From a virus, in the IMG/VR virus record IMGVR_UViG_3300040960_002256, positions 1-40,003 of that record: a stretch of DNA of 40,003 nt. One strand, written 5' to 3'. The notes beneath the pieces were generated by a model, which worked only from the letters and a program-made list of their open reading frames with translations, did no database searches and was not told where the DNA came from. Positions 7,495 to 40,003 of the stretch are shown here, piece after piece (position 1 is the stretch's first letter; every line of letters begins with the position of its first letter). The position numbers were made by a program, and so were the translations under genes.

Positions 7495-10400
7495 TTATTC
7501 CTCACTAAAGTAACCAGTTAATCCTGATTGTGGTGTTGTGTAACCAGGCTCAACATAAGTTGTGTTGTATAAGTTAAAGTTACTAATTCCGCCTGCTCTG
7601 ATAAAGATTGCTTGATCTGTTGGATCTAAAGTTGCTACATCCCAGAACGATCCAGCACTGTCCCATGATGTAGCATCCCAGGTTGCTTGTACAGTTTTAT
7701 CAATTAATTCAGTTCCAGCAGGATCATGTGCTGACCATCTTGCTGATGATAATGCATCTGGTATAATGTGTTGTGAACTTGCAGATCTAACCACAGTGCT
7801 GTTTGCATGGTCTTGTATTGGTGTACCAAGCACACCTCTTCTGATTCCTGTTAGTGTGTTACCAGAAATACCAGTAAATTCTATTAGTTCTGATCCAACC
7901 CAAATTCTACTTGGATTATTAACATTTACAGTGCCGCCTGCAATTTTATTAACTGTTCCAATCACAATAGATGAATCATCTGGGTCTGTGATATCAATAT
8001 CATCCCAAAGTACAGATGCATTAGCAACTGTGATTGTGTTTGAATTAGAATTAATTTCAGCAGATAGAGTTGTTTCAGCCGCTTTAGGCAATCTCATATA
8101 TGTGGTTCTACCATCTTGACCATAAAAAATATTGAAAGCATATTGATCACCGTAACCGTGTGTTTCTGTTGTGTTACCGTCTTGATCAATATCAGCATAG
8201 TCTGGTGATGTTTGTTCATATGTGATCACAGTTAACGATAATGTTTCTTTAACTTTAGCAGGAACCATTTCTTCTGGATAATCTTCGTGTTGTGGTCTTA
8301 CAAAACCAGCACCGTCAAATTGTACAGTGACTAAACTCCAATTACCTGCGTCATAATCAGTAGCAAAACTTGATGAAGCCACGTGATCATTTTGTGCAAA
8401 GTAAACATAGTCTTCAACTAAATCCCATCTGCTGTTTTGTAAAACAGTTTCTGAAGATAAATTTTTATGATTAACATTACATCTATAAAGTTGACTGTTG
8501 TGTAATACAAGGTCACCTACAGCATACGTGTTTGCCACGTTCCATGCAGAGAAATGTGATAAGTCATTGTATCTCACATAACTGTTTGATGTAATTTGTC
8601 CTGATGCATTTGTTGTAACTGTTGTTGTATAATTTGTGCCTGCTACCCAGCCGTTTTTTGACTGGAACAGTGAACGATAAATTGTTTGTACAACATCCGA
8701 ATCCCAACCAATATCGTTATCATATCTGTGTTTGTCAATACCAACAGTGTTGCCTAATTCGTCAATTGTAAACGGTGTACCGTTTAATTCTAAATCTTTA
8801 AATGGAGCAATTATGTTATTAACCTGTTTTAAATATGCATCAACAGAATCTGCATTTGAAGTTATCAACGATGTCAGTTGTTCACCAAAATAATATTTTG
8901 CAACTCTTTCAATTGCTGATGAATCTGGAACTGTTGTCAACGATGTTCTAGTTTTTAATGCTTCAAGTTGTTCTGCTTGAGTACCACTTGATAATATTTC
9001 AATACTTTTAGTTATTCTGTCAAACACTAAATCAGTTTTTAAAGTTATTGATTGCTCGTCCATATCAACATTTGCTTCTTCAATTGCAGTTGATTTTTTA
9101 GACAAGAAGTTTAACAATTTGCCGTGATATGGTTTAACTTCATTTACATAACTTTCAACAAACTGGAATGTGTCTGGTCTGTAAGAAACTCTTTGTTGTA
9201 AACTGTTATCATTTTGTAACACATCAAAGTAACTGGTTTTAATAATCCAATCAATGTTAGTTTGCTCTGTGAAAATATAGTTTATACATTCAAATAACAA
9301 TTCACTTAAACTCTGTTTGTATGATCCAGCTAACACTGTGTTGTATAAAACATTCATCAGTTGTCTAATTTCTGTTGCACCTGTGGTGCTGTTATAAAAG
9401 TCTGTGTTTAATGCTACTGTGCTGGTTTGATTTGCAATTCTAACTAATTCATAAGTTGCAGGGTCAATGCCTTGGTCGTCTAGTTGAATTGTTGCATTTG
9501 CTGAATGATACGATTGTGTTCCTGCACTAGTGTAACCAATTGTTGTTCCTGTACTTGGCGAGTTATAATCTGTGGTTCCAGTTCCTGCTGTGTTAAGATC
9601 AGTTGTTGATGCAACTGCAATGTTTCCTGCCAGGATACTTTCTCTGTCACCATAAATGTAAATAGCCCATTTAGAATTATTATCAATGTTAACTTTGATC
9701 ACTTCGTTCTTTTTAAGAACACTTGTATCAATATCACTAGCAGTATCAACTACTCTGTTAATAATTATTGTGTTGTCATAACCAGGAATGAAATAATCAA
9801 TTTTGTCATACAAGTTTGAAGTAGTTACAGTTGAATCCCAGTTTGGATATTCAATATCAAGATTGATATTTGCTAAAATTTCATTTGTTTTATATCTAAA
9901 TACTCGTCTTGCTTCGCTATTGTTTTTAAACCACGATTGTCTAGGTCTAATACTGTTACCGTATCTTATATTTTCATGTAAATTAGTATCAGGCACTGCG
10001 TTACCTATTGCATCAATACCTGACAGTGAATCAGTGAATTTATTCCAAACGGTGTCAGGTACTAATTCATTTGGATCATTTTCTTTTAATAAAATCCATT
10101 GTTTGTGTATAGGATTGTCGTTGTCTTTGATTTTGTAATTTAATCTTAAAACACTGTTGTCAGTTGATATAAATCTTGCGACATTTGAAACCAATATACT
10201 TGATGCTGACACAGGTGCAAACCAACTTAAACCTTGTGATGTAGGATTTTTTAACAAACGTCCAACTGACAGTGCAGGTAACAATCTAAATTCTTTTTCA
10301 GGAGTAACAGTTCTGTTTTTGACCCAGAAATAATATACAGTAGTTGCAATACCTTGTTTGTCAGTTACAGTTTCTGTCACATATTCGGTTGTGCTTTTAA

Positions 10401-13400
10401 CAGTGCCATCAAGTTCCCAATTGTCTGGTGTTGATGTACTTTTTACCCATTCGTATAAATCAACAGTTGAACCTGGGAATAATGATCCCCAGTTTTTTAA
10501 TCTGTATTCTGTATCAAAATTTTCGTATTCAATATATCTTATAGTTGATGTGTCCCACCATAGTTGACCAACTTGGTTGTTACCCCATACGTATAAGTCA
10601 TTTGCTGTATTGGCTGTGGAAGATGTGTTTGTTACAATAGCAGGATCTGTGTTTCTGATATATGAAATTTCTTGTATTGCAACACCTGGGTATATGTTTT
10701 TGACAGGATCAAACACATCTAAGTCAATTTCGTTTATGCCGTCATAGTCATTGTAAACTCTTGATCTGTCTACTAATTTAGAATTAATTTGAGTGCTTTG
10801 TTTTCTCAAAGTGTTATTGAACAGTGTTTGATCTGGTGTTGGTGCATCATAATCAACATCGGAATTAATAATCCAATAGTCACTGCTTATTGTGATATTT
10901 GCTGAAACATTTGAATTACTTGCCAATGTATCATATGCTGTTCTCACAGTAGCATTTGCAGTCATAGTCATTGTGTACCAAGAATTGTCACCGCCGTTGT
11001 CTAAGAAAATTTTATCACCTTCAACAAATGTTATGTCTGAACAAACATTTGATACAAAATCATTTACTGTGGCTGATAGATTCGCACCCACATTGCTTTG
11101 ATCAACTCCGTTATTTCTTGATGCAAGTCTTACATCTTTCCAAGTATATAAACTGTAGTTGCCACCTGATAAATCATTTGCTGTCACAGTGGTAGCACTG
11201 CCATCAAGTTCAGAAATATTATACAATGCTTTTTTGTAATTAACTGTCACAGTTACATTACCTGTTGTTACGTTTGTTGATGATAAATTTATTGCTAATT
11301 CTACATTTGATCTATCTGTGATATTTGAATCAAATGTTGTCACTGTAGAATTTGCTGACAAGCTCTGATTTGTAAAAATATTTGTGTATGGTGTAGTTGA
11401 TGATGAACCTGCTGGTCTATGACCTAATTGAATTGTTGATGTAGTGCTCGAGTCAAATGCTTCGTTAACTGTGATAACAACATTTGAAATTGAGTTTGAT
11501 TTTAATAAAGGATCTGAAAACGGAATGACATTTTCACCTGAAGATAAATCTATATCAGTAAATAATACAGTATCTTTGATTGCAATTTCAATATCAGTTT
11601 CTCCTCTAAACTGTTTTCTATAACCTGAACCTGGTGCAGTTACGTATGCTCCAGTAATCACGCCACCTGATACAATTAAATTTGCTTGAGCAGGGTTATC
11701 GCCTGAAACTATAAACGAAGGAGACTGATAACCACTGCCTCCGCTGTTGATTTTTAAATTCTTTATACCGCCAAATGTTGCATCACCATATGTTGCTGGA
11801 TTTGTTACAGTAATTGTGTTTACAATCAAATCAACACCGCTGATTGAATAACAATCATTTACAGTTGATGTAGTACTGTTTAAGTCTACAATACTAATTT
11901 TGTTGTTAGCACTGTCAATTCCGTTTATTTCAAATTTTGCCTGAACACTTTCAGTGAATGTTAACACAGCATCTGTGCCTGCTGTACTATCAATAACAGT
12001 TCCGCCTACTGTGTCTGGGAATAAGTTATTAAGTGTGCTTACAGACTGATTACCAATTTTTGTAGCAGTTATGTTGACACTACCAATTTGTCCACTCTTT
12101 GATGTAGCAATACTGATTGTGGCTGTTCCGTTACCGGTTGATAATGATTGATAATCAGATGAAACAACAGAGATAGTATCGGTGGTTAATGTGTTTTTAA
12201 TATTGGCACCGATAGCAGGATTTGTTGAAGCATCTGTAAATGTTACAATGTCACCGCTTACACCTACACTGGCGATAATACCAATTAAATGATAATCTAC
12301 TCCAAGTGTGTTTGCTGGAGCCCAACTACCTATAACAATATTTTCGCCTACTAGATGATCTACACCACCAGTAGCACTAATTGAATTAACTTCGTTAAAT
12401 GTAGAAGCAACAGAACCCAATGTTATTGTGAGATTGCCATTTGGTGATGCTAGTTGAATTGTATCACCAACTTGATAATTTTGACCTGTGTTGACAATAG
12501 TTGGTGTTGTTGTGATTGTGTTGGCTGTTAATTGACTGCCTAATGTAAGATTTGATAAAGTGTGTCCTGTACCAAATGATGGTTCTATGTTTTTATTTGT
12601 AACTGTGCCTCTCAGTCTAACAACTGCATTTAATCCGGCTGAATCATTGTCACCTGTTAATATTCTGATGTCACCTGGTTCAGCATAAAAATTACTACCA
12701 CCCGATACAACATCAATATTAGTTATTGCACCGTTAGAATCAATTGTTGTTACATTACCTATAGCAGAACTTCCACCTGCACCACTCACTGTAACAGTGT
12801 CGCCTACTGAATAACCAGAGCCACCAACTAAGATTACCATCTCTGCCACTTTGTCAAACACTTCGTCAACAACAATGTCGGCACCTGAACCACCAATATT
12901 TGCAAAATCAAATGTTTTACTCACTGATTGATCTGCTAAATTTAAAGTTAAAATTTTGTTACCATATGTAGTTGTTATACTTGATGTGGCTGATGCTGGT
13001 TTTGGTAAAACCAATTCAACTGAATCACCATGATCAGTTAATAGTTTAGTTGCTTCTGAAAGTGTAACTGTGAATGGTTCGGTTGATGTAACATTTTCAA
13101 TTTGTTGTGCAATTGGTGTATATCTATAAACATTCCAATCATTGTTAGTATCTTTGGCTACCCAAACTAAATGTCCATTGTTTATTGTAATTGAACTATA
13201 ATTGTTTGAGTAATAATTTTGTAAATCTGTTTTTGTAAATGCTTGACCATTTACATCATTGTAATGCACATATCCTGCTGTTGGCATTTCAAACTGTTCA
13301 GATCTTGATGCAAACAGATTTTCTTTTGTTTGATCACCGTGTGGTTTTTTAACCCATCTTGTGTTGTCATCAACATCAATTGTAATAATATTATCAGTAT

Positions 13401-16400
13401 CAATATCAGTTGTAACTACATTGTCTTTTTTAGGTAAAAATTGTATAATTTGTGGATTGGTTTTAATCTCTTCATGGCCTAAATTAACTTCAATTGATTG
13501 ATTAATTGCACTACCACCAAAGTCTGCTAATTTGATTGCATAGTATTCGTAGATAGATATATCTTGATTATCTAAAACTTTATCACTACGTAACAATCTA
13601 TCAATTGCATTTTGTGAACCTTTTTGTTTGATAAAGCCTTGATAGAATCTAACTTGGTTTTCATCAATAATTTCTAAATTGTCTAAATGATCTCTTGACT
13701 GATATCCTATTGTGTGTAAGCCTGCTTTGTTGAGATCTTCGTTGTTGGTTGTAGTGTCCACATCAAGATACGTTTGTATATCTTTAGCAGAAGTATCAAA
13801 GTTACTGACAATACCTGTGTTAGTAATCAAATGACCATTTGCTTCTAACTTACCAAGCCAGTCAGTTGTTCTTAACACTGTTTGTTTTAGTCTTGGTTGT
13901 CTTAATGCAAGTATTGGATCGTATATGACATCACCAAATGATGTCACATTGTCAAATATAGTCACATGTTCAATTTCTCTTGTGAATAATTTTACAAAAT
14001 AAATTGGAGTGTTGTCATCAACAGTGATTGAAATTTTTCTTCCGTCTCTAATTACAGTTGTATTTGCTGTTTCAATTGGAAATCCACCTCTATCTAAAAT
14101 AGCATAACTGTCTCCAATTTGATCTTCAACATTTGCTACAATACCGCTAGTGGGTTCAAATGATACTTCATTTGCTAAAGGAGACAGAGTTATGATTGAA
14201 CCTGCTTCCCAATCTCCTAAACTCCAGAATAAAAATTCTTTTGCTGAATATAACCAATTATATGTTTCTCTAATTCTGTTATTTTGTGTGTCAAATATCC
14301 AACCTTGGTCTTCAAGATACCTACCCCAGTTGATTAAGAAATCAAATAGATCTTGAATTGAATCAAATTCAGTACCGTATTCAAAATTTTGTAATTTATT
14401 TCTTACAACATTTCTATAATAAGTTACAGCCGCACCGCCTTCCATTGGTATCTGTGCAACTGATTGAAAATTATTAGGATCAAAATTACTGCTGGTAGTG
14501 TGTGCTTTTGTGGTTTTATAAACTTGCCCTTCAAATTTGATATACTGACCAACACTTAAAGTTGTACCTGTGGAGAATGGTGGTGTATCAACTGGCTTAC
14601 CCCCAACTGAAACAGGTGCTGACGATCCATTTTTGTCACTGACTGTTGTAGTAAAATAATTTGCACCAGCATCGTAACCATGCACTTTATAACCAGTTAA
14701 CGTTTTTTCAACAATAACTCCTGAATATGCTTTTTTACCTAAGCCTTGTCCTTGGTGAACAAACGAAACAACATTGGTTTCTGGTAAAAAGATACTTGAT
14801 GTTAGTGAATCAGGTGAGTATGCTTCAGACTGTACTTTTAAAGAATCAAAGTCAATATACGATGCTTGTTTGATACCTAGTTGTGGTTGTACATTTCTAA
14901 TTCTACCGCCGTATAGTGTGCTTATGTCTTTGGTTTCGTTTAGCAGTCTTTCTGAAACATAATGATTGTAACCGTAACCAATAACTACTTCGTTTGTATT
15001 GGTTAATTCGCGATGAACATAAACATTGTTGTTTGTACGTTTACTGCTGTTGCTTGAATATATTTGTTTTGGATTTGCTTCTGCTGTTGAAACATTTAAA
15101 GTATCAAACATTGCTTCACAAAATTCTGCTGGTTTTAAAACTAACAGTGTTTTTGTAAATGCAAAATTGTATGAACTGTTAATCATAAAAGCCAACTCTG
15201 CAGGTGATATATCTCCTAACTTCCAATCTTTTTTGGCTTCAATTGATGTTGGTTCTGTAGTTATCAATCCAATATCTTTAGGAGATTTTATATTACCTTG
15301 TAAATCAACTGGCACATAGTTTGAAAAATTATCATGTCTATAAGGATTATTTTTATCAGTGTAAGTGTTGTCAACAAAATTTGCTCTTTTGCCTAATCTA
15401 ATAATTCCTTTTTCAATATCATTTAACAGTGTTTTTCTTTTGTCTACATTTACCCATGAATATGTTGAATCCCACCACGTTGGTTTGATAGAAAAGCCTA
15501 ACATTTCCCATGGATGTGAATCTGGTCTATGTGTTCCGTAAAACTTTTTGTATATGCCTCTCCAGTGACCCGGTGTTGGGTCATCTGATATGTTAGTAAC
15601 AGAACTGTAGTTCCAAGTTTTCCAATCACTTGAATCATAAGTGCTGTTTACTCGCATTTCAACTAGATTTTGTATTCCCCAATCATATGCTCTGTTTCTT
15701 ATTGCTTGTACATATTCTTCATAACTGTAATCTTTTTTGTTAAAGTAATTGCCAATTACAGTTTGGTATGCCATTGAAGGCACATAATCTGGGTCAATAA
15801 ATTTAGTTTCAATACCATTATAAATTCTTTTTTCAAGTTCTATTAATGCTGTATCTCTATAATCATTATATTTTAAAGTTAGCGAACCATCATGTCCTTG
15901 TGTGAATCTTTGTGTGCCACTGCTGTAATTTGAATCAATAATTGTTTGTGGTACATATGACTGTGCAATTCCTAATTTGGCTGGTGTAGCCGGAATCCAA
16001 ACTGGTTGTTTTGTTTCAAAGTAATCAACATAAACAGTATCTCCAATGATTGGTTTGCCAGGGCCTATAAAAACAATTTTTGTGCCGTCCGCATTGTCTA
16101 TAACATAATCAACATTCATTAAAAGTAAAACATCATTTTTATAAACATATAATGATTTTTTATCTTTGTCTGTTAGTGGGTTATAAGTGATATCAATTTC
16201 AAGACCAGGTGCACCAACTAACTGTTGTGACAATGTTGCGTTTTGTACAAATGATAATGTTGAACCAAAACTTTGTGTCCATGTTTTATTTGATGCTGTA
16301 ATTGGATATGTTGTTCTAGAACCTGTTTCACCATATGAAAGCATCATACTGTATGCCCAGTTATCAGTTGATTTTTTGTTTACATTTATTATTTTTAAAG

Positions 16401-19400
16401 CCTCATCAACTATTTGTTTACCAGACCATGAATTAATGTCATTGTCTCTGTTTACTTTTTCTAATGTTTTTAAAAATTTATTTTTAAATCTAACATATTC
16501 AGATTGTGAAAATTTAATTGCTTTTGCAATGTCTAAATCATCATTATTGACATGAGTCATAAACTTTAATAATGGAGCATTGTGTTGTAAAATATGTTCA
16601 CACAATGATACATTTTTTTCAGTATCTCTGTATGAGTTATTACCTAATGCAAGTCCTACTATGTCATTTTGATTTTGTATACCAGATGAAAAATGATTAA
16701 GTAAATTGCTGTAACTGTAACTAGTAACATCGTTGTTTGATGCATTATTAGACAAGTTTTTTGGTATTTCGTAGTATGCTCTTGATAACACTGTGTCAAC
16801 ATCGTTAGTATGAAATTTAATCAATAAGTGTTTGTGATTTTCAAGATCATTTGTGAATTTAATATATTTTCCTAAACGAATTTCATAATCTGTGTTTAAT
16901 ATTTTTAATTGGTTGTCAACATATACTTCTACACTGTTGTCGTTTGCTATTACAACATCTAAATCAAAATTATTTTTAATTGAATATTCATCAGTTTCAA
17001 ATTCTTGAATTAGTTTCTGATTGGATTTATCTTCAACAGCTCTCCATTCGTTATAATAATTTGTTTCAGTTTTGTCAGCAATAGTTGTATATTGATTATC
17101 AATTATATTAATTTTACCACCCATGCCAGCATGATTATGACAGTAGTAATACAACGTGTCTGGAGTTGATGCTGTAGGTATGATTTCTAAATATCTTGTT
17201 TTAGCTGAATTAAATGAATTTGATTTAAACACAAGTTCAGTAACTTCTACGTCATCAAGATAATATTTTATGCCAGTGCTATATGTTGATCCAGAATTGT
17301 GTGTTCCATCATTTACAGAACTAAACAAAAATGGATGATATGTTTGAGTATACCCATTATTAGAAAATGATGAATCATCAAGTATAAATCTGTAAGTGTT
17401 ATTTTTTTGAAAAATAACTGTCTGTTGTTTTACATTGTTAATGTAAAATCTATTACCAGAAACTGTAAATGCAGGATTAACAGCAACATCTAATTCCACA
17501 GTATCATTTAAAATATTTTTATAATCGTATTGCTTGTAATATTTAAAACCAGTTAATGCTGTTTCAGAATTTAAAAAGTTTTCAAATTCATAATTGCTTA
17601 TTGAATTGTATAAAGAATAATGTGGTGAAAAACCTAAAACATCATCAACAGCACCAGTGCCAACCTTGTAACCAAATATTTTGTTTCCAGCAAAACTACT
17701 ATTAGGATATTGAACCAAATCGTCAAGTGCTTTACTACTGCTATCATATAATGCAAACAACGGAGCCTGATTTAATCCTTGTTTTTGCTGTGCTAGATCC
17801 CAAGCATAACCAGTCCAATAGTATTCTTTACCAGCATTTGCTAAACCTAATTTTACAGTCACTTTACTGTAGTCTTGAACTGTAATACCAGAAACTTTTG
17901 TTAATAATATTGATGAACCAACACCTGATACTTCCCAGATTGAACTTGATACATCAAAGTCTGCTCCAGTGATATCCCATCCAACATCACTAGTTCCGTC
18001 AAGATCAATATCATGATCCCATGGGTAACTATCACCAGACCATTCAGTTAATGTTGTTTGAAAATTTGTATTAACAAATAGTATTTTCATGCCATTAAGC
18101 AAATCAATATCGTCAACTCTATAATTTGCTTGACCATTTATACTGTCAACTGTGTCTGACACTGCCAACACATCCACTGTGTAAACATGATCTTCACCAT
18201 AATCAAATAATCTTATATCTTTTTCAAATTCAAGAATAGGACGTTTTCCTTTTCTGTTAACATCTAATTGAAATACTCCTGCTTGAAACTCTGTTGTACT
18301 ATCCCAATAACCATCGTCCCAGCCACTAATTACTGATGTAACACTGTCCCACGGATGAAATACAGTAACTTCTTCTTGAAAGTCTTTGTATGCTGTAATT
18401 ACATCTTTGTGTACCCATCCGTTAGTTCGAGACCAAGGGTTTTTATCTTTTGATCCTCTTGCTATTGTGATATAGTCTGGATTTTCAATTGCAGGTACTG
18501 TGTCATACCTTGTGGAGTCCCAACCTTCTGTAGTTGATGATGTACCTTGTGTATTTGACGGATCCCATGGCAGAAATTTTTCATCTAAAAATAATTCTGT
18601 TTCACTACTAGTTTCAACAAAAAATATTCCATTTTTGCTTTTGATCCCTTCTATAAAATATTTTTTGTCTTGATAATTTGAATTTGTTAATGATGCAGAT
18701 GAAAATTCAATTAATAATCCAGACGTAAATGCTATACCATTTGGTGATGTATAATTTTTTAAACCAACAATATCATCTGGATCTATTTTATAAGTAACTG
18801 AAATATTATCACCAGCATTTAAAACAATACTGCTAGAAGAAAAATCTAAAGTTAACCCTGTTGTTTGATAATCAACTGTAGCAACACTATTGACTTGAAC
18901 CGTATCATGGGCACCAATTGGATATGATAAAGTAAAAGTTGTTTGATTTGCGGCAACTATAAATTGTTCAGTTTTACCTGCAACAACAACAGTTGGTACA
19001 CCTGAATCAAGACTTGGATACCAATAGTAGTTTTCATAGTTTAAAAATTTATCATAATCAATTGGCGGACCGTATGAATAATAGTTTTGACCAAATAATC
19101 TATTTTGATTATTAGTTTTACCATTTTCATGAGTTATATAGTCAAGAGCTTCAGTAAAGAAAACTGTGTCAATTGTTTGTAAGTTTGCAGGATCTTTTAA
19201 TACTGCTGTAGTTTCTAATTGATAATTTTGTCTAGAATTGTTTTTTTCTATTTTGTAATTGTCTTTGAATGGGTTATAATATGTACCATATTTTCTACCA
19301 ATCCACTCAGTGACTTTTTCATTTTGAGCTTTAGAAAATACTTGTTCTACTGTGCCATCAAAAAAGTTTTTTAATTTTGCAGTTTGTAAAAACTCAGGTA

Positions 19401-19425
19401 ATTTTGTGCTTACTTTATCAGCCAT
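7495..19425 (-). CDS. Giant 3976-residue baseplate/tail structural protein
   Basis: This single uninterrupted frame is nearly 12 kb. It follows gp6 by 5 bases, with GGGAG before the ATG, in the place where T4 has the wedge genes gp7-gp10. The N-terminus (KVSTKLPEFLQTAKLKNFFD) is of a kind seen in large phage baseplate proteins. Residues about 650-775 form a cupredoxin-like module (H697, C762, H765, M768). Residues about 1300-1320 hold the HPWEMLGFSIKPTWWDS motif, which I know from very large marine phage structural proteins. Residues 1618-1660 and 3622-3675 look like CBM5/12-type carbohydrate-binding modules. Residues about 2195-2610 contain GGSGY-type glycine-rich repeats. The C-terminus has several W-D-S/T units. 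It is probably a multi-domain wedge or adhesion scaffold. Exact equivalence to gp7 or gp10 is not shown. Confidence 0.75.
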   Translation of the reverse strand: MADKVSTKLPEFLQTAKLKNFFDGTVEQVFSKAQNEKVTEWIGRKYGTYYNPFKDNYKIEKNNSRQNYQLETTAVLKDPANLQTIDTVFFTEALDYITHENGKTNNQNRLFGQNYYSYGPPIDYDKFLNYENYYWYPSLDSGVPTVVVAGKTEQFIVAANQTTFTLSYPIGAHDTVQVNSVATVDYQTTGLTLDFSSSSIVLNAGDNISVTYKIDPDDIVGLKNYTSPNGIAFTSGLLIEFSSASLTNSNYQDKKYFIEGIKSKNGIFFVETSSETELFLDEKFLPWDPSNTQGTSSTTEGWDSTRYDTVPAIENPDYITIARGSKDKNPWSRTNGWVHKDVITAYKDFQEEVTVFHPWDSVTSVISGWDDGYWDSTTEFQAGVFQLDVNRKGKRPILEFEKDIRLFDYGEDHVYTVDVLAVSDTVDSINGQANYRVDDIDLLNGMKILFVNTNFQTTLTEWSGDSYPWDHDIDLDGTSDVGWDITGADFDVSSSIWEVSGVGSSILLTKVSGITVQDYSKVTVKLGLANAGKEYYWTGYAWDLAQQKQGLNQAPLFALYDSSSKALDDLVQYPNSSFAGNKIFGYKVGTGAVDDVLGFSPHYSLYNSISNYEFENFLNSETALTGFKYYKQYDYKNILNDTVELDVAVNPAFTVSGNRFYINNVKQQTVIFQKNNTYRFILDDSSFSNNGYTQTYHPFLFSSVNDGTHNSGSTYSTGIKYYLDDVEVTELVFKSNSFNSAKTRYLEIIPTASTPDTLYYYCHNHAGMGGKINIIDNQYTTIADKTETNYYNEWRAVEDKSNQKLIQEFETDEYSIKNNFDLDVVIANDNSVEVYVDNQLKILNTDYEIRLGKYIKFTNDLENHKHLLIKFHTNDVDTVLSRAYYEIPKNLSNNASNNDVTSYSYSNLLNHFSSGIQNQNDIVGLALGNNSYRDTEKNVSLCEHILQHNAPLLKFMTHVNNDDLDIAKAIKFSQSEYVRFKNKFLKTLEKVNRDNDINSWSGKQIVDEALKIINVNKKSTDNWAYSMMLSYGETGSRTTYPITASNKTWTQSFGSTLSFVQNATLSQQLVGAPGLEIDITYNPLTDKDKKSLYVYKNDVLLLMNVDYVIDNADGTKIVFIGPGKPIIGDTVYVDYFETKQPVWIPATPAKLGIAQSYVPQTIIDSNYSSGTQRFTQGHDGSLTLKYNDYRDTALIELEKRIYNGIETKFIDPDYVPSMAYQTVIGNYFNKKDYSYEEYVQAIRNRAYDWGIQNLVEMRVNSTYDSSDWKTWNYSSVTNISDDPTPGHWRGIYKKFYGTHRPDSHPWEMLGFSIKPTWWDSTYSWVNVDKRKTLLNDIEKGIIRLGKRANFVDNTYTDKNNPYRHDNFSNYVPVDLQGNIKSPKDIGLITTEPTSIEAKKDWKLGDISPAELAFMINSSYNFAFTKTLLVLKPAEFCEAMFDTLNVSTAEANPKQIYSSNSSKRTNNNVYVHRELTNTNEVVIGYGYNHYVSERLLNETKDISTLYGGRIRNVQPQLGIKQASYIDFDSLKVQSEAYSPDSLTSSIFLPETNVVSFVHQGQGLGKKAYSGVIVEKTLTGYKVHGYDAGANYFTTTVSDKNGSSAPVSVGGKPVDTPPFSTGTTLSVGQYIKFEGQVYKTTKAHTTSSNFDPNNFQSVAQIPMEGGAAVTYYRNVVRNKLQNFEYGTEFDSIQDLFDFLINWGRYLEDQGWIFDTQNNRIRETYNWLYSAKEFLFWSLGDWEAGSIITLSPLANEVSFEPTSGIVANVEDQIGDSYAILDRGGFPIETANTTVIRDGRKISITVDDNTPIYFVKLFTREIEHVTIFDNVTSFGDVIYDPILALRQPRLKQTVLRTTDWLGKLEANGHLITNTGIVSNFDTSAKDIQTYLDVDTTTNNEDLNKAGLHTIGYQSRDHLDNLEIIDENQVRFYQGFIKQKGSQNAIDRLLRSDKVLDNQDISIYEYYAIKLADFGGSAINQSIEVNLGHEEIKTNPQIIQFLPKKDNVVTTDIDTDNIITIDVDDNTRWVKKPHGDQTKENLFASRSEQFEMPTAGYVHYNDVNGQAFTKTDLQNYYSNNYSSITINNGHLVWVAKDTNNDWNVYRYTPIAQQIENVTSTEPFTVTLSEATKLLTDHGDSVELVLPKPASATSSITTTYGNKILTLNLADQSVSKTFDFANIGGSGADIVVDEVFDKVAEMVILVGGSGYSVGDTVTVSGAGGSSAIGNVTTIDSNGAITNIDVVSGGSNFYAEPGDIRILTGDNDSAGLNAVVRLRGTVTNKNIEPSFGTGHTLSNLTLGSQLTANTITTTPTIVNTGQNYQVGDTIQLASPNGNLTITLGSVASTFNEVNSISATGGVDHLVGENIVIGSWAPANTLGVDYHLIGIIASVGVSGDIVTFTDASTNPAIGANIKNTLTTDTISVVSSDYQSLSTGNGTATISIATSKSGQIGSVNITATKIGNQSVSTLNNLFPDTVGGTVIDSTAGTDAVLTFTESVQAKFEINGIDSANNKISIVDLNSTTSTVNDCYSISGVDLIVNTITVTNPATYGDATFGGIKNLKINSGGSGYQSPSFIVSGDNPAQANLIVSGGVITGAYVTAPGSGYRKQFRGETDIEIAIKDTVLFTDIDLSSGENVIPFSDPLLKSNSISNVVITVNEAFDSSTTSTIQLGHRPAGSSSTTPYTNIFTNQSLSANSTVTTFDSNITDRSNVELAINLSSTNVTTGNVTVTVNYKKALYNISELDGSATTVTANDLSGGNYSLYTWKDVRLASRNNGVDQSNVGANLSATVNDFVSNVCSDITFVEGDKIFLDNGGDNSWYTMTMTANATVRTAYDTLASNSNVSANITISSDYWIINSDVDYDAPTPDQTLFNNTLRKQSTQINSKLVDRSRVYNDYDGINEIDLDVFDPVKNIYPGVAIQEISYIRNTDPAIVTNTSSTANTANDLYVWGNNQVGQLWWDTSTIRYIEYENFDTEYRLKNWGSLFPGSTVDLYEWVKSTSTPDNWELDGTVKSTTEYVTETVTDKQGIATTVYYFWVKNRTVTPEKEFRLLPALSVGRLLKNPTSQGLSWFAPVSASSILVSNVARFISTDNSVLRLNYKIKDNDNPIHKQWILLKENDPNELVPDTVWNKFTDSLSGIDAIGNAVPDTNLHENIRYGNSIRPRQSWFKNNSEARRVFRYKTNEILANINLDIEYPNWDSTVTTSNLYDKIDYFIPGYDNTIIINRVVDTASDIDTSVLKKNEVIKVNIDNNSKWAIYIYGDRESILAGNIAVASTTDLNTAGTGTTDYNSPSTGTTIGYTSAGTQSYHSANATIQLDDQGIDPATYELVRIANQTSTVALNTDFYNSTTGATEIRQLMNVLYNTVLAGSYKQSLSELLFECINYIFTEQTNIDWIIKTSYFDVLQNDNSLQQRVSYRPDTFQFVESYVNEVKPYHGKLLNFLSKKSTAIEEANVDMDEQSITLKTDLVFDRITKSIEILSSGTQAEQLEALKTRTSLTTVPDSSAIERVAKYYFGEQLTSLITSNADSVDAYLKQVNNIIAPFKDLELNGTPFTIDELGNTVGIDKHRYDNDIGWDSDVVQTIYRSLFQSKNGWVAGTNYTTTVTTNASGQITSNSYVRYNDLSHFSAWNVANTYAVGDLVLHNSQLYRCNVNHKNLSSETVLQNSRWDLVEDYVYFAQNDHVASSSFATDYDAGNWSLVTVQFDGAGFVRPQHEDYPEEMVPAKVKETLSLTVITYEQTSPDYADIDQDGNTTETHGYGDQYAFNIFYGQDGRTTYMRLPKAAETTLSAEINSNSNTITVANASVLWDDIDITDPDDSSIVIGTVNKIAGGTVNVNNPSRIWVGSELIEFTGISGNTLTGIRRGVLGTPIQDHANSTVVRSASSQHIIPDALSSARWSAHDPAGTELIDKTVQATWDATSWDSAGSFWDVATLDPTDQAIFIRAGGISNFNLYNTTYVEPGYTTPQSGLTGYFSEE

Positions 19426-34783: not shown

Positions 34784-35461
34784 ATGGAATCACAACAAAA
34801 ATTAGAACAACATTTTAAAGATGACTGGCAAGGCGAAAAACACATTTATGATTGGTTGCGTAAACACACTAATATTCCTTATTTGCAACTTGATATAGAT
34901 ATTCCATATCCAGAAATTTACAAAGAAGCACTTGCAGTACAAGATCAGTTTGTGGTACACAGAAAACACGAAGGTGATGAAACTTGGAAAAGTGCTTGTT
35001 TGCATGGAGTTGATGTGCATGTAACCAACGATTGGAAAGCAGATGAATACAAAGACAAAGGCTGGACTGAACCTCCAGAATATAAATGGACCAGTCTTGC
35101 AGATCAATGTCCTGTAACTACAGATTTTTTTAAAAATACTTTTCCATATAGTAGATACGACAGACTAAGGTTTATGTGGATCGAGCCAGGAGGATATATA
35201 TTACCACATCAAGACTTACCTGAAAGACACTTTGCACCTGTGAATGTGTCAATATATAATCCTGAAGGTTGTGAATTTAGATTTAAAAACTGGGGTACTG
35301 TACCTTTCACACATGGTAGTGCTTTTTTAGTTGATGTTGGCCAAGCTCACTGTGTATGGAACAGAAGCAGTGAACCAAGATTGCACATGATTGCACATGG
35401 ATCAAAAGACTGGGATCGTTTTATACCAATGCTAGAAAGAAGTTGGAAAAAATACAAATAA
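34784..35461 (+). CDS. 2OG-Fe(II) oxygenase, aspartyl/asparaginyl hydroxylase-like
   Basis: This 225-residue protein has the jelly-roll iron-binding signature. YILPHQD gives His142 and Asp144, GQAHCVW gives the distal His189, and Arg199 in SSEPRLHMIAHG would bind 2-oxoglutarate. The surrounding text (YDRLRFMWIEPGGYILPHQD, then VNVSIYNPEGCEFRFKNWG and HGSAFLVDVGQAHCVWN) is like the aspartyl/asparaginyl beta-hydroxylase and related oxygenases common in marine T4-like phages. Its substrate is unknown: protein side chain, nucleic acid base or small molecule. It has a late box and AGGA upstream, and the next gene starts two bases after its stop. Confidence 0.82.
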   Translation: MESQQKLEQHFKDDWQGEKHIYDWLRKHTNIPYLQLDIDIPYPEIYKEALAVQDQFVVHRKHEGDETWKSACLHGVDVHVTNDWKADEYKDKGWTEPPEYKWTSLADQCPVTTDFFKNTFPYSRYDRLRFMWIEPGGYILPHQDLPERHFAPVNVSIYNPEGCEFRFKNWGTVPFTHGSAFLVDVGQAHCVWNRSSEPRLHMIAHGSKDWDRFIPMLERSWKKYK

Positions 35462-35463
35462 GA

Positions 35464-36639
35464 ATGACTAAGCCTACTAACATTCTTAATAAACAATATA
35501 CATTGGTTATCTTAAAAAATGATACTATTTTAGATAGTATTAAAGATTTCTTTTATCAAGACTTGTTTCATGAGATTGAAAATGTTGTTTATACTAGTAT
35601 GAAAGAGTTTGACCGTGTATTAGATAAAGTCAATACTAGTCATATTATTGTAATTCAAGAAGGTTGTTTCTTTTACGATCATCTCACAGTAAACTTTCTC
35701 AAAGATATTGACAGCAGTTTAGAAGAGTATTCTTTAATAGGACACATACTTAACCGTAAAGGTTCTTACTATAATATACACGAACAATGTTTTATTCTTA
35801 ATATAAATCACTGGCGTCAAGCAGGAATGCCTAAATTTTATGACAATTCTGTTGATAATTTAATTAGTGTTAAAAGGTCAGATGATAATTTCCACGATGA
35901 TTATACTCCTAAGTGGATTAGCAAAGATACTGAAAACACAGAACACACAGAAAAAGTTATCAAACTTAAATTTGGTGGCAAAGTTATCAGTGAAATGTTA
36001 AAACATAATTTTAAAATACGTCCTTTTGCTGAACATGAAAGAAATTCAAAAAAGTTTATATATTACGAACAGCAAGAACAGATAGAAAATTTACTAGCAT
36101 GGGATAAGTTAAACGCAAATCATAAACATTATTTTCCTTATACAACAAAACCACAAAGTATTGAATTCACAAATAATGGTGAACACTATATTTCAGTTGC
36201 AAATGGATTGGAAAGTTTATTTAGAATTAATAAAGTATATGAAGGTATAAAAAAAATTACATTTTATGATATTTCAATAACTGCATTAATATTCACTGAA
36301 ATTTTTATTAACAAATTTTATGACCATTATATTCAATTTGTTGATGATTTTCAAACTTTATTACCAAGCAAACATCATAAAATTAAACCAACTGATCATA
36401 ACATTACATTAAACAAAATCAAACCTGTATTAGAGCATATCAGGAATAACAACATAACAGTAGAGTATCTTGTAGGAGATATCACAAGAAATAATATAAT
36501 TAAAAATATTAATAAACCTACACTAATTAGCCTAACAAATGTGTTTACATATCAAAAAAATCTAATTAGAAAAGAAGAAAGAGAATCTTATATACAAGAA
36601 TTAAACAATCAACCTAATATTAAGGAAGTTTTATTTTAG
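35464..36639 (+). CDS. Unknown two-part protein, paralogue A
   Basis: From the ATG at 35464 the product has 391 residues; a TTG 21 bases earlier lies inside the previous gene and is less likely. Part one (about 1-195) includes HIIVIQEGCFFYDHLTVNFL, SLIGHILNRKG, CFILNINHWRQAGMPKF and NFKIRPFAEHERN. It resembles GT-like segments in marine phage proteins (GHILDR and LHxQ patterns). Part two (about 240-391) has YISVANGLESL, ITFYDISITALIFTEI, VEYLVGDIT and LISLTNVFTYQ, a layout like a Rossmann-fold methyltransferase (acidic residue after strand 2, Asn-Val-Phe after strand 4). The function is not known. A paralogue in opposite orientation lies at 37028-38116. No cysteine cluster or membrane span is seen. 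Confidence 0.65.
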   Translation: MTKPTNILNKQYTLVILKNDTILDSIKDFFYQDLFHEIENVVYTSMKEFDRVLDKVNTSHIIVIQEGCFFYDHLTVNFLKDIDSSLEEYSLIGHILNRKGSYYNIHEQCFILNINHWRQAGMPKFYDNSVDNLISVKRSDDNFHDDYTPKWISKDTENTEHTEKVIKLKFGGKVISEMLKHNFKIRPFAEHERNSKKFIYYEQQEQIENLLAWDKLNANHKHYFPYTTKPQSIEFTNNGEHYISVANGLESLFRINKVYEGIKKITFYDISITALIFTEIFINKFYDHYIQFVDDFQTLLPSKHHKIKPTDHNITLNKIKPVLEHIRNNNITVEYLVGDITRNNIIKNINKPTLISLTNVFTYQKNLIRKEERESYIQELNNQPNIKEVLF

Positions 36640-36673: not shown

Positions 36674-37036
36674 ATGAATTTTGAACAATTGGTAAGATAC
36701 ACATTAGAATATGGTAATCAATTACGATATTACCATTGGCAAACATCTAGTTATGCACAACACGAAGCACTAGGTGAATTTTATAACGGACTATCAACAA
36801 AGATAGATGGATTAGTTGAATCATGGCAAGGTCGTAATGGAAACATCAAAGTCGACCAAGGCAGTGTTGAACTAGTTGATTATTCAGATGTTGATGCTGT
36901 GATTGAAAGTGCTGAAAATTTAAGAGATGCTTACGAACAATTTAAAGAAAAAATCAGTTACGGTGATATTCAAAATCAAATTGACGAAGTTGTTGAATTA
37001 ATTAATCACACAATATATCTATTAAAATTAAAATAA
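36674..37036 (+). CDS. Dps/ferritin-like small protein (DUF5856-like)
   Basis: This is a 120-residue helical protein. NQLRYYHWQTSSYAQHEALG and FYNGLSTKIDGLVESWQG hold His21-Trp22, His30, Asp45 and Glu49. In Dps the second His, Asp and Glu of the ferroxidase site are spaced +15 and +19 (E. coli H63, D78, E82), exactly as here from His30. The first His is 9 rather than 12 residues before it. I recall a DUF5856-type family of such proteins in T4-like phages. A Dps-like oligomer could bind iron or DNA in the virion or infected cell, but that is inferred. It has a perfect late box and AGGAGC upstream, and its 3' end overlaps the convergent gene by 9 bases. Confidence 0.65.
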   Translation: MNFEQLVRYTLEYGNQLRYYHWQTSSYAQHEALGEFYNGLSTKIDGLVESWQGRNGNIKVDQGSVELVDYSDVDAVIESAENLRDAYEQFKEKISYGDIQNQIDEVVELINHTIYLLKLK

Positions 37037-38116
37037 AATTTCAAATTTATTTTGGTGTTGCATGGCCATATTGTACCAGTAATTTTTTTCACCTTTTCTG
37101 ATGTGATTATGACTGTATTCAAACACATTTGACAAGTGAAGCAGTGTGTTGGTATTTACATTTTTAAAAACAAATAATCTTGTAATATCTCCATAACAAT
37201 AGTCTACTGTTATATCATTGTTTCGAATATGTTCTATCACAGGCATTACTTCGTTAACATCTTTGATATACTGATCAATTTGATTGTATCCATGAGCATC
37301 AACATGCAAAGTGGTCCATGGTCTTCCTCCAAAAGTATTTTCAAAATGTTCAACAAATTTTTTATAATCTGCTTCAAAATCAGACAACAGCAATTCTGTA
37401 AATATCAAAGCAGGCATTGATATATCATAATATGTGATATGTTTTATTGATTGATAAACATTTTTTATTTTACGTAGACTCTCAACACCGTTTGCTACTG
37501 AAATATAATTAGGATAAAATTCAGAAAATTCATTTTTTCTCACAGTTGTTGCTACTGGATAGTAGTAAGATTTAGGTGGAATACTTTCCCATGACAGCAG
37601 ATTTGTTACTTGATCTTTTTTACTGTAATATAAAAATGTTTTAGATTGATTTTCATAATTGTTAAATGGTCTAATTTTAAAATTATTTTTTAGTAATACA
37701 TCTATAACTTTATTGCCAAATTCACGCTCGTCTAATAAAAAGTCTGGTGCACCTACTTGTTTCCAATCATGCAAGTTCAAAATAAAAGTGTTTGACTCTA
37801 ATTTGGAATCATTATTTAATAAATTTCCTATTAATGAATATTGGTTAAAATCTTTAACTGTTTTTCTTAAAAAATCATTGTCTATATGATTAGTAAAAAA
37901 CACACCTTCTTCAATCACTATAGCAAATTTGTTTGTGACTTGTGTTTCTAAACATTTAGTAAGCTCTTGCTTTTCAATGCAAAAAGATTCTTTGATTAAA
38001 TCATGTAAAAGCATTTCATAAAAATAGTCTTTGATACTTTTTAATAAACTGTGATTTTTAATAATGATTAAACTGAAATTTTCTTCAATATCACTGACTT
38101 TGATTTCTGATTGCAT
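37028..38116 (-). CDS. Unknown two-part protein, paralogue B
   Basis: This 362-residue protein aligns end to end with the one at 35464-36639. Matching segments are FAIVIEEGVFFTNHIDNDFL, QYSLIGNLLN, NTFILNLHDWKQVGAPDF, NNFKIRPFNNYENQSKTFLY, YISVANGVESLRKI, ITYYDISMPALIFTEL, VDYCYGDITR and LSNVFEYSHNHIRKGEK, with both proteins ending in a E-[VI]-L-F tail. The middle region is shorter than in A by about 25 residues (a Lys/Asp-rich insertion in A). The gene is on the opposite strand and shares its 3' end with the Dps-like gene. A late box lies 36 bases upstream, inside the nuclease gene. The function is unknown. Confidence 0.65.
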   Translation of the reverse strand: MQSEIKVSDIEENFSLIIIKNHSLLKSIKDYFYEMLLHDLIKESFCIEKQELTKCLETQVTNKFAIVIEEGVFFTNHIDNDFLRKTVKDFNQYSLIGNLLNNDSKLESNTFILNLHDWKQVGAPDFLLDEREFGNKVIDVLLKNNFKIRPFNNYENQSKTFLYYSKKDQVTNLLSWESIPPKSYYYPVATTVRKNEFSEFYPNYISVANGVESLRKIKNVYQSIKHITYYDISMPALIFTELLLSDFEADYKKFVEHFENTFGGRPWTTLHVDAHGYNQIDQYIKDVNEVMPVIEHIRNNDITVDYCYGDITRLFVFKNVNTNTLLHLSNVFEYSHNHIRKGEKNYWYNMAMQHQNKFEILF

Positions 38117-38588
38117 CTTTGTTGTTTGTCCAAAATTCTTTTGCTGTGATGTATTTATAGGTCTTGTAAGTTTTAGAAAATGTTAAATCTTGCCATTGAG
38201 TTGGATCCCATAAAACAAATTCACCTTGCCTAGAAATTTTTACACACAATAACCATTTGTCTTGTGATTCGCAACTTTCTTGTGATTGACGAATCCATTC
38301 ATCGAGCTGTTTGACTTCTTCACCTAGTGCCAATTGATTCCATTTAAATTCACCGTAGTTTTTTGCTTCAATTACCAGCAGTGGAAATGAGTCAGGTGGA
38401 ATTATGTCACCTTTAAATCCTCTGGTTTGGTTTTCGCTTAATGTTTGTGTTCGCACAATGTTTTGACCACCCACAAAAGCACCCGAGTATGGTACTCGAG
38501 TAAATGATTCGTTGTACAAATCTGAGAGAAAATTTGCTATATCTCGCTCGTACGATTTGCCTTTGTTTTTGCTTTTTCTACCACTCAT
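38091..38588 (-). CDS. PD-(D/E)XK nuclease / Holliday junction resolvase-like
   Basis: This 165-residue protein has the features of PD-(D/E)XK nucleases. NKGKSYERDIANFLSDLY gives the helix-1 Glu14, GFKGDIIPP gives Asp61, and PLLVIEAKNYGEF gives the E-x-K pair Glu74 and Lys76. The basic N-terminal tail (SGRKSKNKGK) is like that of archaeal or RecU-type resolvases. It may resolve recombination intermediates or act as a structure-specific nuclease during DNA packaging. In T4 that job belongs to the unrelated gp49. The ATG at 38588 sits about 7 bases after a strong -10, so its mRNA has almost no leader. It overlaps paralogue B by 26 bases. Confidence 0.72.
   Translation of the reverse strand: MSGRKSKNKGKSYERDIANFLSDLYNESFTRVPYSGAFVGGQNIVRTQTLSENQTRGFKGDIIPPDSFPLLVIEAKNYGEFKWNQLALGEEVKQLDEWIRQSQESCESQDKWLLCVKISRQGEFVLWDPTQWQDLTFSKTYKTYKYITAKEFWTNNKDAIRNQSQ
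38152..38159 (-). promoter_or_regulatory. T4-like late promoter box (TATAAATA)
   Basis: A perfect TATAAATA on the minus strand lies 36 bases before the ATG at 38116, within the 3' end of the nuclease gene. It would allow paralogue B to be made late and separately from the nuclease. Confidence 0.5.
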
Positions 38589-39391: not shown

Positions 39392-39400
39392 TTAAATTAA

Positions 39401-39463
39401 ATCACCTCCGCGATGGTGTTATCACGTCCTTTGCGGAACTGTGATCATCTTTGCGATACTGCT
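39401..39463. repeat. Three imperfect tandem repeats
   Basis: Units 39401-39420, 39421-39443 and 39444-39463 begin ATCACCTCCGCG, ATCACGTCCTTTGCG and ATCATCTTTGCG. Units 2 and 3 are clearly related and unit 1 is looser. On the minus strand units 2 and 3 form short stems around the same loop, GCAAA (UCC/GGA and AUC/GAU). Confidence 0.55.
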
Positions 39464-39865
39464 AATTTTGATTTGTATTAGATTCTATATGAGTATGCAC
39501 TTATTACCAAGATTTGGCCATACTTCACCCGTTGCCGGGCGAAGTACTTTTCTTTGTTAATAAGTTGTTTTGTTACTCATTACCAGAGATCAGTCATCTA
39601 ACTCACGGAACCTAAAGAGGCGGTTGGCCGGTACCCCTATCATTCCTACTTCATCCAACGGGACTTGTACATACCCAGAGTTAGCAGTTTATGTACAAGA
39701 CAATGGTTGCATTTCTTTCTCTAGCAGAGCCATTATCATTTGTGCCTTAGTTAACACTTGCCTTGCAACACTAGATTCACCATCTTTATGACGCATTTCT
39801 AGGATCTTATTGATCAATTGAGTTGCTATGTTATGCCTGAAAATTTGCCTTGATATTTGCCTATA
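39401..39865 (-). ncRNA. Candidate structured non-coding RNA with pseudoknot
   Basis: The 547-base gap between genes is GC-richer than its surroundings and folds well on the minus strand. Helices (plus coordinates): 39664-39673 with 39690-39699 (10 bp); its loop 39681-39688 with 39458-39465 (8 bp), making a pseudoknot; inside that, nested 39574-39580 with 39489-39495 (7 bp), 39556-39565 with 39499-39507 (9 bp, one bulge) and 39521-39531 with 39536-39546 (11 bp) closed by a GCAA tetraloop. Further up, 39730-39737 pairs with 39699-39706 (8 bp, stacked on hairpin 39719-39729). The wobble pairs are G-U on the minus strand but would be A-C on the plus strand, so the RNA is leftward. A promoter at 39875-39903 could make it. 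The class is unknown. Confidence 0.6.
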
Positions 39866-39938
39866 TAATTTGTATAATGTAACAAGTAGCAACAAAAGTC
39901 AACCTCTTTTTTGATTAAATACACAAAAAGGCAAATAT
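39854..39938. repeat. Inverted 10-base motif ATATTTGCCT/AGGCAAATAT
   Basis: ATATTTGCCT at 39854-39863 is the exact reverse complement of AGGCAAATAT at 39929-39938; a near copy, AAATTTGCCT, is at 39842-39851. One copy directly precedes the ATG at 39939 and the others fall near the start of the leftward transcript. They could be operators or RNA-level control sites. Confidence 0.4.
39875..39903 (-). promoter_or_regulatory. Early-type promoter toward the structured RNA
   Basis: On the minus strand TTGACT (39903-39898), 17 bases, CATTAT (39880-39875). Transcription would begin near 39868 and run left through the structured region. The -10 is imperfect, but the -35 and spacing match the other early promoters in the window. 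Confidence 0.55.
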
Positions 39939-40003
39939 ATGGTAGAATGGGATTTTACAAGTCATTGGGATTACAGAGATTGCAGACTAGAAAACAACGG
40001 TTT
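39939..40003 (+). CDS. Unknown protein, 5' end only
   Basis: The frame opens at the ATG at 39939 and is still open at the right edge, giving MVEWDFTSHWDYRDCRLENN and one further residue. AAGG lies eight to ten bases upstream as a possible binding site. The Trp- and acid-rich start is not diagnostic, and I cannot assign a family. It diverges from the structured RNA and shares with it the AGGCAAATAT motif. Confidence 0.5.
   Translation, partial: MVEWDFTSHWDYRDCRLENNG

What the first reader, a model, noticed from the sequence alone, without database searches (positions are those of the whole stretch)
39401..39865. A pseudoknotted structured RNA in an intergenic gap, possibly a new phage RNA class
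Seen directly: on the minus strand, a set of helices nest in order, CUGCUAA...AUGAGUA...ACUUAUUAAC...an 11-bp hairpin with a GCAA tetraloop, then their partners in reverse order. The outermost helix (8 bp, 39681-39688 with 39458-39465) uses the loop of a 10-bp hairpin (39664-39699), so the fold is a pseudoknot. Wobble pairs (39521-39546 and 39699-39737) are G-U on this strand and A-C on the other. The segment is GC-rich within an AT-rich genome, and an early-type promoter points into it. Known large phage or marine RNAs include GOLLD, ROOL, manA and IMES; I cannot assign it to any of them.
Basis: partly seen in the sequence, partly recalled or inferred. Interest (0 to 1): 0.82.

Follow-up and report, generated by a model that had tools for sequence, protein, structure and literature searches.

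The report
Uncharted structured RNA of aquatic phages
A stretch between genes of an uncultured marine virus of bacteria encodes a large, elaborately folded RNA found in well over a hundred aquatic viruses and, in a related form, in freshwater bacteria; its job is unknown, but it sits beside a DNA-cutting enzyme in the viruses and carries two loops that nearly always have the same sequence, a pattern that has no ready explanation.

Summary
The minus-strand RNA is real. A family found by sequence scans (over 140 loci, at least 124 distinct cores, marine and freshwater IMG/VR contigs; T4-type capsid gene on 16 of 20 records checked) shows strong compensatory change: 88.6% of 3116 cells paired, 31 pairs changed on both sides, 0/500 shuffles. 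G-U far outnumbers A-C (263:36), so the RNA is on this strand. The RNA also runs further 5' (to ~39865), through a spurious 68-aa ORF.

It is not entirely new. Rfam's little-studied Polynucleobacter-1 (RF01718) is the 5' domain of the same class in seven phage loci, and eight Burkholderiales copies share the 3' core. RF01718 does not detect the window.

New here: the 3' core, two loops with an identical 7-mer (121/121 scored phage loci; 7/8 bacterial) that change in concert, and constant linkage in phages to a GIY-YIG or PDDEXK_15 nuclease (61/61 loci with full flanks). Function is unproven; I favour a trans-acting scaffold for DNA processing.

The parts
39401..39866 (-). whole structured non-coding RNA (approximate ends: start inferred from the -10 box, end from the last 3' hairpin)
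39897..39902 (-). -35 box TTGACT
39874..39879 (-). -10 box CATTAT, spacer 17
39738..39865 (-). 5' domain, variable between lineages; its position corresponds to Rfam RF01718 in some relatives
39730..39734 (-). helix Pa 5' strand AAUGG (pairs with 39702-39706)
   Evidence: 100% paired, 3 of 5 pairs with double changes
39702..39706 (-). helix Pa 3' strand CCAUU
   Evidence: 94.9% paired, 5 pairs with double changes
39664..39673 (-). hairpin Pb 3' strand
39678..39684 (-). pseudoknot strand CUAACUC in the loop of Pb
   Evidence: 100% paired, 5 of 7 pairs with double changes
39655..39659 (-). helix Pc 5' strand GUUGG
   Evidence: (double changes in freshwater copies)
39623..39627 (-). helix Pc 3' strand CCAAC
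39634..39638 (-). helix Py 5' strand AGGGG, crosses Pc (second pseudoknot); start of the conserved GGGGUACCGG core
   Evidence: (G-C:47, A-U:14)
39616..39620 (-). helix Py 3' strand CCUCU
39575..39585 (-). repeat loop 1, UGGUAAUGAGU
39499..39509 (-). repeat loop 2, UGGUAAUAAGU: same sequence as loop 1 in 10 of 11 positions
39521..39546 (-). hairpin Pf with GCAA tetraloop, between the two repeat loops
39403..39457 (-). 3' end: three short hairpins (39447-39457, 39426-39438, 39403-39418); replaced by a different module in other marine relatives
38091..38588 (-). PDDEXK_15 nuclease gene (PF24608), linked to the RNA in this clade

Best explanation
What it is (shown): a non-coding RNA of about 465 nt on the minus strand of a tailed-phage contig, with its own promoter-like sequence, a double-pseudoknot core and two hairpin loops that carry the same sequence. 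It is a divergent phage lineage of a wider RNA class whose 5' domain, in another lineage, is Rfam RF01718 (Polynucleobacter-1). How it works (inferred): it acts in trans as a scaffold in the element's DNA processing. The double-pseudoknot core holds the two identical loops in a fixed relation, so that each can contact an identical partner site; the RNA thereby gathers two copies of the same thing, most likely two copies of one nucleic-acid sequence or of the same RNA. In phages this would act together with the neighbouring junction-cutting nuclease, in bacterial islands with the neighbouring integrase. My probabilities: real structured ncRNA 0.98; same class as Polynucleobacter-1 0.9; trans-acting 0.8; acts in DNA processing next to those enzymes about 0.3; loops recognise a shared nucleic-acid partner rather than a protein about 0.5.
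For: Structure: covariation far above shuffled and slid controls in three separate alignments (freshwater phages, marine phages, bacteria). A model built from freshwater copies only finds the window at E 9.3e-6. RNA level and strand: G-U 263 against A-C 36, and 37 against 4. Non-coding. Class: seven loci with RF01718 directly 5' of the core; bacterial RF01718 copies share Pb, PK, Pc, Py and the 3' GAGCG..AGCGA hairpin. Trans-acting: the nuclease is upstream, downstream or on the other strand of the RNA. Linkage: 61 of 61 loci with both flanks have a GIY-YIG or PDDEXK_15 gene within 2.3 kb, and RNA and GIY-YIG distances agree (Spearman 0.77, permutation maximum 0.19). Two unrelated nuclease families take the same place. 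One copy per contig, 20 of 20. Repeat loops: 121/121 identical against 18 expected; the loops change together while the rest of the 3' domain and the nuclease hardly change; 7 of 8 bacterial copies obey it with other 7-mers.
Against: No function, expression or binding was measured. SegE GIY-YIG genes also occur without the RNA in isolates (Melnitz, S-SRM01 and others: no RNA by model R1), so the enzyme does not need it. The bacterial copies lack both nucleases within the 3 kb held. The loop sequence flips between loci whose nucleases are 98.6% identical, which speaks against recognition by the nuclease itself. No complement of the loops was found inside the RNA or enriched at gene starts (15 observed, 23 expected), so the proposed partner is not identified. 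L219 breaks the identity rule, and L029, L055 and L059 differ in one base.
Confidence: 0.4

Rival explanations
1. A GOLLD/ROOL-like RNA-only particle: many copies assemble into a homo-oligomer, and the two identical loops are equivalent docking elements in neighbouring subunits. The neighbouring nuclease is only a stable genomic neighbour.
For: Large, multi-pseudoknotted phage RNA of unknown function, like GOLLD and ROOL, which form RNA nanocages with intermolecular loop contacts (PMC12286853). Loop coupling is independent of the protein. Bacterial copies lack the nucleases.
Against: No covariance match to GOLLD or any Rfam large RNA. No tRNA genes nearby in 47 loci, whereas GOLLD and ROOL are often near tRNA islands. 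The 7-mers are not self-complementary in general, so simple kissing does not explain identity.
Confidence: 0.3
2. A cis-acting element: the RNA is a 3' UTR (freshwater phages) or 5' leader (some marine phages) that controls the neighbouring nuclease mRNA.
For: Same strand and adjacent in most loci (92 upstream GIY-YIG, 9 upstream and 15 downstream PDDEXK_15). Weinberg 2010 marked Polynucleobacter-1 'y' in the second column of its motif table, which I take from memory to mean cis-regulatory.
Against: Nuclease before, after and on the opposite strand (three PDDEXK_15 and three GIY-YIG loci); an antiparallel gene lies between RNA and nuclease in the window; own promoter-like sequence in the marine clade; bacterial copies without either nuclease.
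Confidence: 0.12
3. Relic or part of a homing element: a nuclease ORF plus structured RNA that moves as a unit, like an intron or HEARO-type element.
For: Constant nuclease neighbour; weak similarity of the GIY-YIG protein to group I intron endonucleases (TIGR01453, 20 bits, below cut-off); integrase in the bacterial loci.
Against: No group I, group II or HEARO match at E up to 10 for the window. Single copy per contig. Lies between genes, with conserved neighbours, and its distances follow those of the GIY-YIG gene.
Confidence: 0.1
4. A DNA element (replication origin, packaging or recombination site) whose inverted repeats only look like an RNA fold.
For: Plus strand also folds better than shuffles (z -3.1); neighbours are DNA-processing genes.
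Against: G-U pairs outnumber A-C about 7 to 1 and 9 to 1 on the minus strand; crossing helices with covariation; promoter-like sequence and 3' hairpins.
Confidence: 0.04
5. A short protein (68 aa, 39689-39895) with an overlapping fold.
For: tblastn finds relatives of the frame.
Against: In-frame stops and frameshifts in relatives; no Pfam or PHROG match.
Confidence: 0.01

Closest known systems
Polynucleobacter-1 RNA (Rfam RF01718; Weinberg et al. 2010, PMC2864571)
   Same: In seven phage loci it is the 5' neighbour, 35-140 nt away, of the same 3' core. Bacterial copies have the same pseudoknot, Pc, Py, repeat loops and 3' GAGCG..AGCGA hairpin.
   Different: The Rfam model covers only 141 nt of the 5' domain and misses the core and the loops. 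The window's own 5' domain does not match it. Phage copies sit by nucleases; bacterial ones by a DUF6641 gene and an integrase.
GOLLD and ROOL RNAs
   Same: Large pseudoknotted phage RNAs of unknown function.
   Different: No covariance-model match to GOLLD, or to ROOL in the Rfam-wide scan; no tRNAs nearby; different core; nuclease linkage.
HEARO/OMEGA RNAs (nuclease with adjacent RNA)
   Same: Structured RNA next to a nuclease gene.
   Different: Other nuclease families (GIY-YIG, PDDEXK_15), no Rfam match, no evidence for a guide segment.
IS110 bridge RNA (PMC11208160)
   Same: One RNA with two functional loops next to a DNA-rearranging enzyme.
   Different: No IS110 recombinase among the neighbours examined; loops here are short, identical hairpin loops; no DNA target known. 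Analogy only.

Membership tests
Polynucleobacter-1 (RF01718) | match of the window to the Rfam model at or above 37 bits | tested here: not met
   no match in G000
Polynucleobacter-1 (RF01718) | relatives carrying both the Rfam domain and the window's core, contiguous and in one order | tested here: met
   L119, L127, L171, L153, L220, L221, L222
Polynucleobacter-1 (RF01718) | bacterial RF01718 copies share pseudoknot, Pc, Py and 3' hairpin with the phage RNA | tested here: met
   97.6% paired, 0/500 shuffles; match of architecture by eye; model R1 itself does not hit them
GOLLD (RF02032) | covariance-model match | tested here: not met
   best 4.9 bits in 10 records
GOLLD (RF02032) | location near tRNA genes | tested here: not met
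   no tRNA in the window or 47 loci
ROOL, OLE, HEARO, group I/II introns, tmRNA, RNase P, manA, IMES (Rfam 15 as a whole) | any match up to E 10 | tested here: not met
   only chance matches of miRNA, snoRNA and similar families far below cut-off
GOLLD/ROOL-type homo-oligomer | RNA-only multimer | not testable with these tools
   needs mass photometry or cryo-EM
HEARO/OMEGA-type guided nuclease | guide segment matching a DNA target, and nuclease of that family | tested here: inconclusive
   nuclease family differs; loop complements not enriched at gene starts; DNA targets not tested
IS110 bridge RNA | IS110 recombinase next to the RNA | tested here: not met
   representative neighbours are GIY-YIG, PDDEXK_15 or Phage_integrase

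The most novel reading that the evidence does not exclude
A bridge-like RNA: the two identical loops base-pair with two copies of one short DNA sequence (for example both partners of a recombination or resolution event), and the RNA directs a junction-processing enzyme (GIY-YIG or PDDEXK_15 nuclease in phages, tyrosine recombinase in bacterial islands) to them. The strict, fast and concerted change of both 7-mers would follow from the need to match two copies of the same site.
Probability: 0.07. Interest if true: 0.96.

Novelty: new variant of a known kind. Interest (0 to 1): 0.78.

Why it matters
It adds a nuclease-linked member to the small set of large phage RNAs without a function. The two-loop identity rule is an unusual kind of covariation (same with same, not complement with complement) that is strict in phages and nearly so in bacteria; explaining it would reveal either a new tertiary contact or a shared trans partner, and it can be tested directly by making the loops unequal.

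Tried and rejected
Protein reading of the 68-aa frame (stops and frameshifts). GOLLD and all Rfam families for the window. The genome-collection hits to CCGTTGGATGAAGTAGG: of 13, only L045 has the rest of the RNA; the others are isolated 17-mer matches. Isolate phages and plasmids: no DNA match. Noncoding gaps beside the resolvase of PA5oct and Phosso: no sequence or model match. Third internal strand complementary to the repeat loops: none above shuffles. Antisense pairing of the loops to gene starts: none. Recognition of the loops by the GIY-YIG protein: loops change while the protein does not. T4 gene-60-like ribosome bypass (identical take-off and landing sites around a hairpin) was considered because of the RGA-UNA repeats, and dropped because I saw no conserved reading frame there. 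Search of 399 Burkholderiales genomes with the phage core model: nothing, although RF01718 copies there have the architecture, so that model does not reach them.

Full report
OBSERVATION. The window's minus strand at 39395-39745 folds at -100.5 kcal/mol, better than all 100 shuffles (z -3.88). No Rfam family reaches its cut-off in the window and nothing meaningful appears up to E 10. A 68-aa frame lies over its 5' half; a search with that frame brought 14 viral loci, but their DNA shows that the conserved thing is the nucleic acid: among 13 sequences long enough to judge, four have in-frame stops and four are frameshifted, one being in both groups.

FAMILY. Marine and freshwater are my reading of the clades and of the Rfam note for RF01718, since IMG/VR gives only sample numbers here. 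Contigs reach 322 kb; 16 of 20 records checked carry a T4-type major capsid gene and each has exactly one copy. The phage isolate collection has none at DNA level.

STRUCTURE. Mutual information on 89 sequences put Watson-Crick pairs at the top. In 61 freshwater-type sequences 52 pairs in 9 helices are 88.6% paired, 31 pairs have changes on both sides, 324 cells against 115.5 shuffled, 0/500. In 14 marine sequences including the window: 96.1% paired, 14 pairs with double changes against 6.9, 0/500. Slid controls fall to 36-49% paired. The loop of hairpin Pb pairs with 39598-39604 (pseudoknot 1), and Pc (39655-39659/39623-39627) is crossed by Py (39634-39638/39616-39620) and, in freshwater copies, by a further helix (pseudoknot 2). 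G-U exceeds A-C 263:36 and 37:4, so the fold acts as RNA on the minus strand. A covariance model made from freshwater copies only finds the window at 39580-39703, E 9.3e-6.

REPEAT LOOPS. Two hairpin loops flank hairpin Pf, about 57 nt apart, in the frames CUC-N7 and UCU-N7. In 121 of 121 scored phage loci the two 7-mers are identical; shuffling gives 18 (maximum 32 in 2000 shuffles). The scoring required A at positions 3 and 6 of each 7-mer but not identity. Ten variants occur in that set. Between L168 and L139 both loops differ by the same G-to-A change while the surrounding domain is otherwise almost unchanged. The 7-mers differ even where the adjacent GIY-YIG proteins are 98.6% identical. 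No complement exists in the RNA above chance. The window has UGGUAAUNAGU in both loops; three marine relatives differ at one base.

CLASS. A wider Rfam scan of relatives hit RF01718 Polynucleobacter-1. It lies directly 5' of the core in seven loci of at least four distinct sequences. Searches of Burkholderiales genomes with RF01718 (3 of 399 and 6 of 399, one shared) gave eight bacterial loci; downstream of each Rfam match is the same architecture: Pb with pseudoknot, Pc GUUUC/GAAAC, Py, repeat loops (identical in 7 of 8, with 7-mers such as AACAAAA, AGCGAAA, AGAGAAA), Pf, and the GAGCG..AGCGA hairpin. Counted on these eight: 97.6% paired, 9 pairs with double changes against 3.6, 0/500. The only paper in the held library that names Polynucleobacter-1 is the 2010 table. 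The phage-trained model does not itself hit the bacterial copies, so the last link rests on shared order of parts and on loci that hold both domains.

CONTEXT. In phages the RNA is near a nuclease: SegE_GIY-YIG (PF19835) or PDDEXK_15 (PF24608, PHROG name RusA-like resolvase). Of 148 loci 139 have one in the stretch held; the other nine end at a contig or stored-data edge beside the RNA; with both flanks of 2.3 kb present it is 61 of 61. A random position in the same loci is within 2.6 kb of one in 45% of cases, so the linkage is strong but the loci are short. Order and strand vary. In isolates SegE GIY-YIG occurs without the RNA. In bacteria the neighbours are DUF6641 and Phage_integrase, with neither nuclease in 3 kb.

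MECHANISM. Shown: a conserved, strand-specific, non-coding, double-pseudoknot RNA with an identity constraint between two loops. Inferred: trans action (from variable position and strand), work alongside DNA-processing enzymes (from neighbours only), and a shared partner for both loops (from identity and lack of internal complement). Not shown: expression, binding, function. GOLLD/ROOL-like self-assembly (PMC12286853) is the strongest rival.

NOVELTY. By Rfam's criterion the window is not RF01718, but it belongs with it by shared core. The new parts are the core, the loop rule, the phage distribution and the nuclease linkage. I therefore call it a new variant of a known kind, not a new class. 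The library of papers searched is open-access only, so an unpublished or subscription description cannot be excluded.

Noticed in passing
L206 1487-2500 (Sinorhizobium phage Phosso) and L205 979-2491 (Pseudomonas phage PA5oct): Long stretches with no or only tiny annotated ORFs beside the PDDEXK_15 resolvase gene of two cultured jumbo phages; the Phosso stretch folds well on the minus strand (z -5.9). No match to the RNA described here.
   Followed up: partly
L212-L219: RF01718 RNA in Burkholderiales lies in loci with a DUF6641 gene and tyrosine recombinases: the bacterial RNA seems to travel in islands.
   Followed up: partly
L080 12839-12908: Near-threshold match to Rfam freshwater-2 RNA (RF02980, 47.1 bits, cut-off 49.9) in a phage contig.
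   Followed up: no
window 39850-39878 (+): Strong promoter-like site TTGATA-17-TATAAT (11 of 12) pointing right, to the gene that begins near 39940, opposite to the RNA promoter.
   Followed up: no
window 35443-36639 (+) and 37028-38116 (-): Two long ORFs with similar sequence and no Pfam or PHROG match that look like diverged copies of one unknown family; relatives stand near the RNA in 13 cases (cluster 10).
   Followed up: no
L025, L028, L029, L045, L054, 3' of the RNA core: The 3' end of the marine RNAs is swapped between unrelated hairpin modules (CACCAUCGCGGAGGUG type and CUAACG..CCUACGUAG type).
   Followed up: no
window 7495-19425 (-): Single ORF of 3976 aa in the virion gene region.
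   Followed up: no
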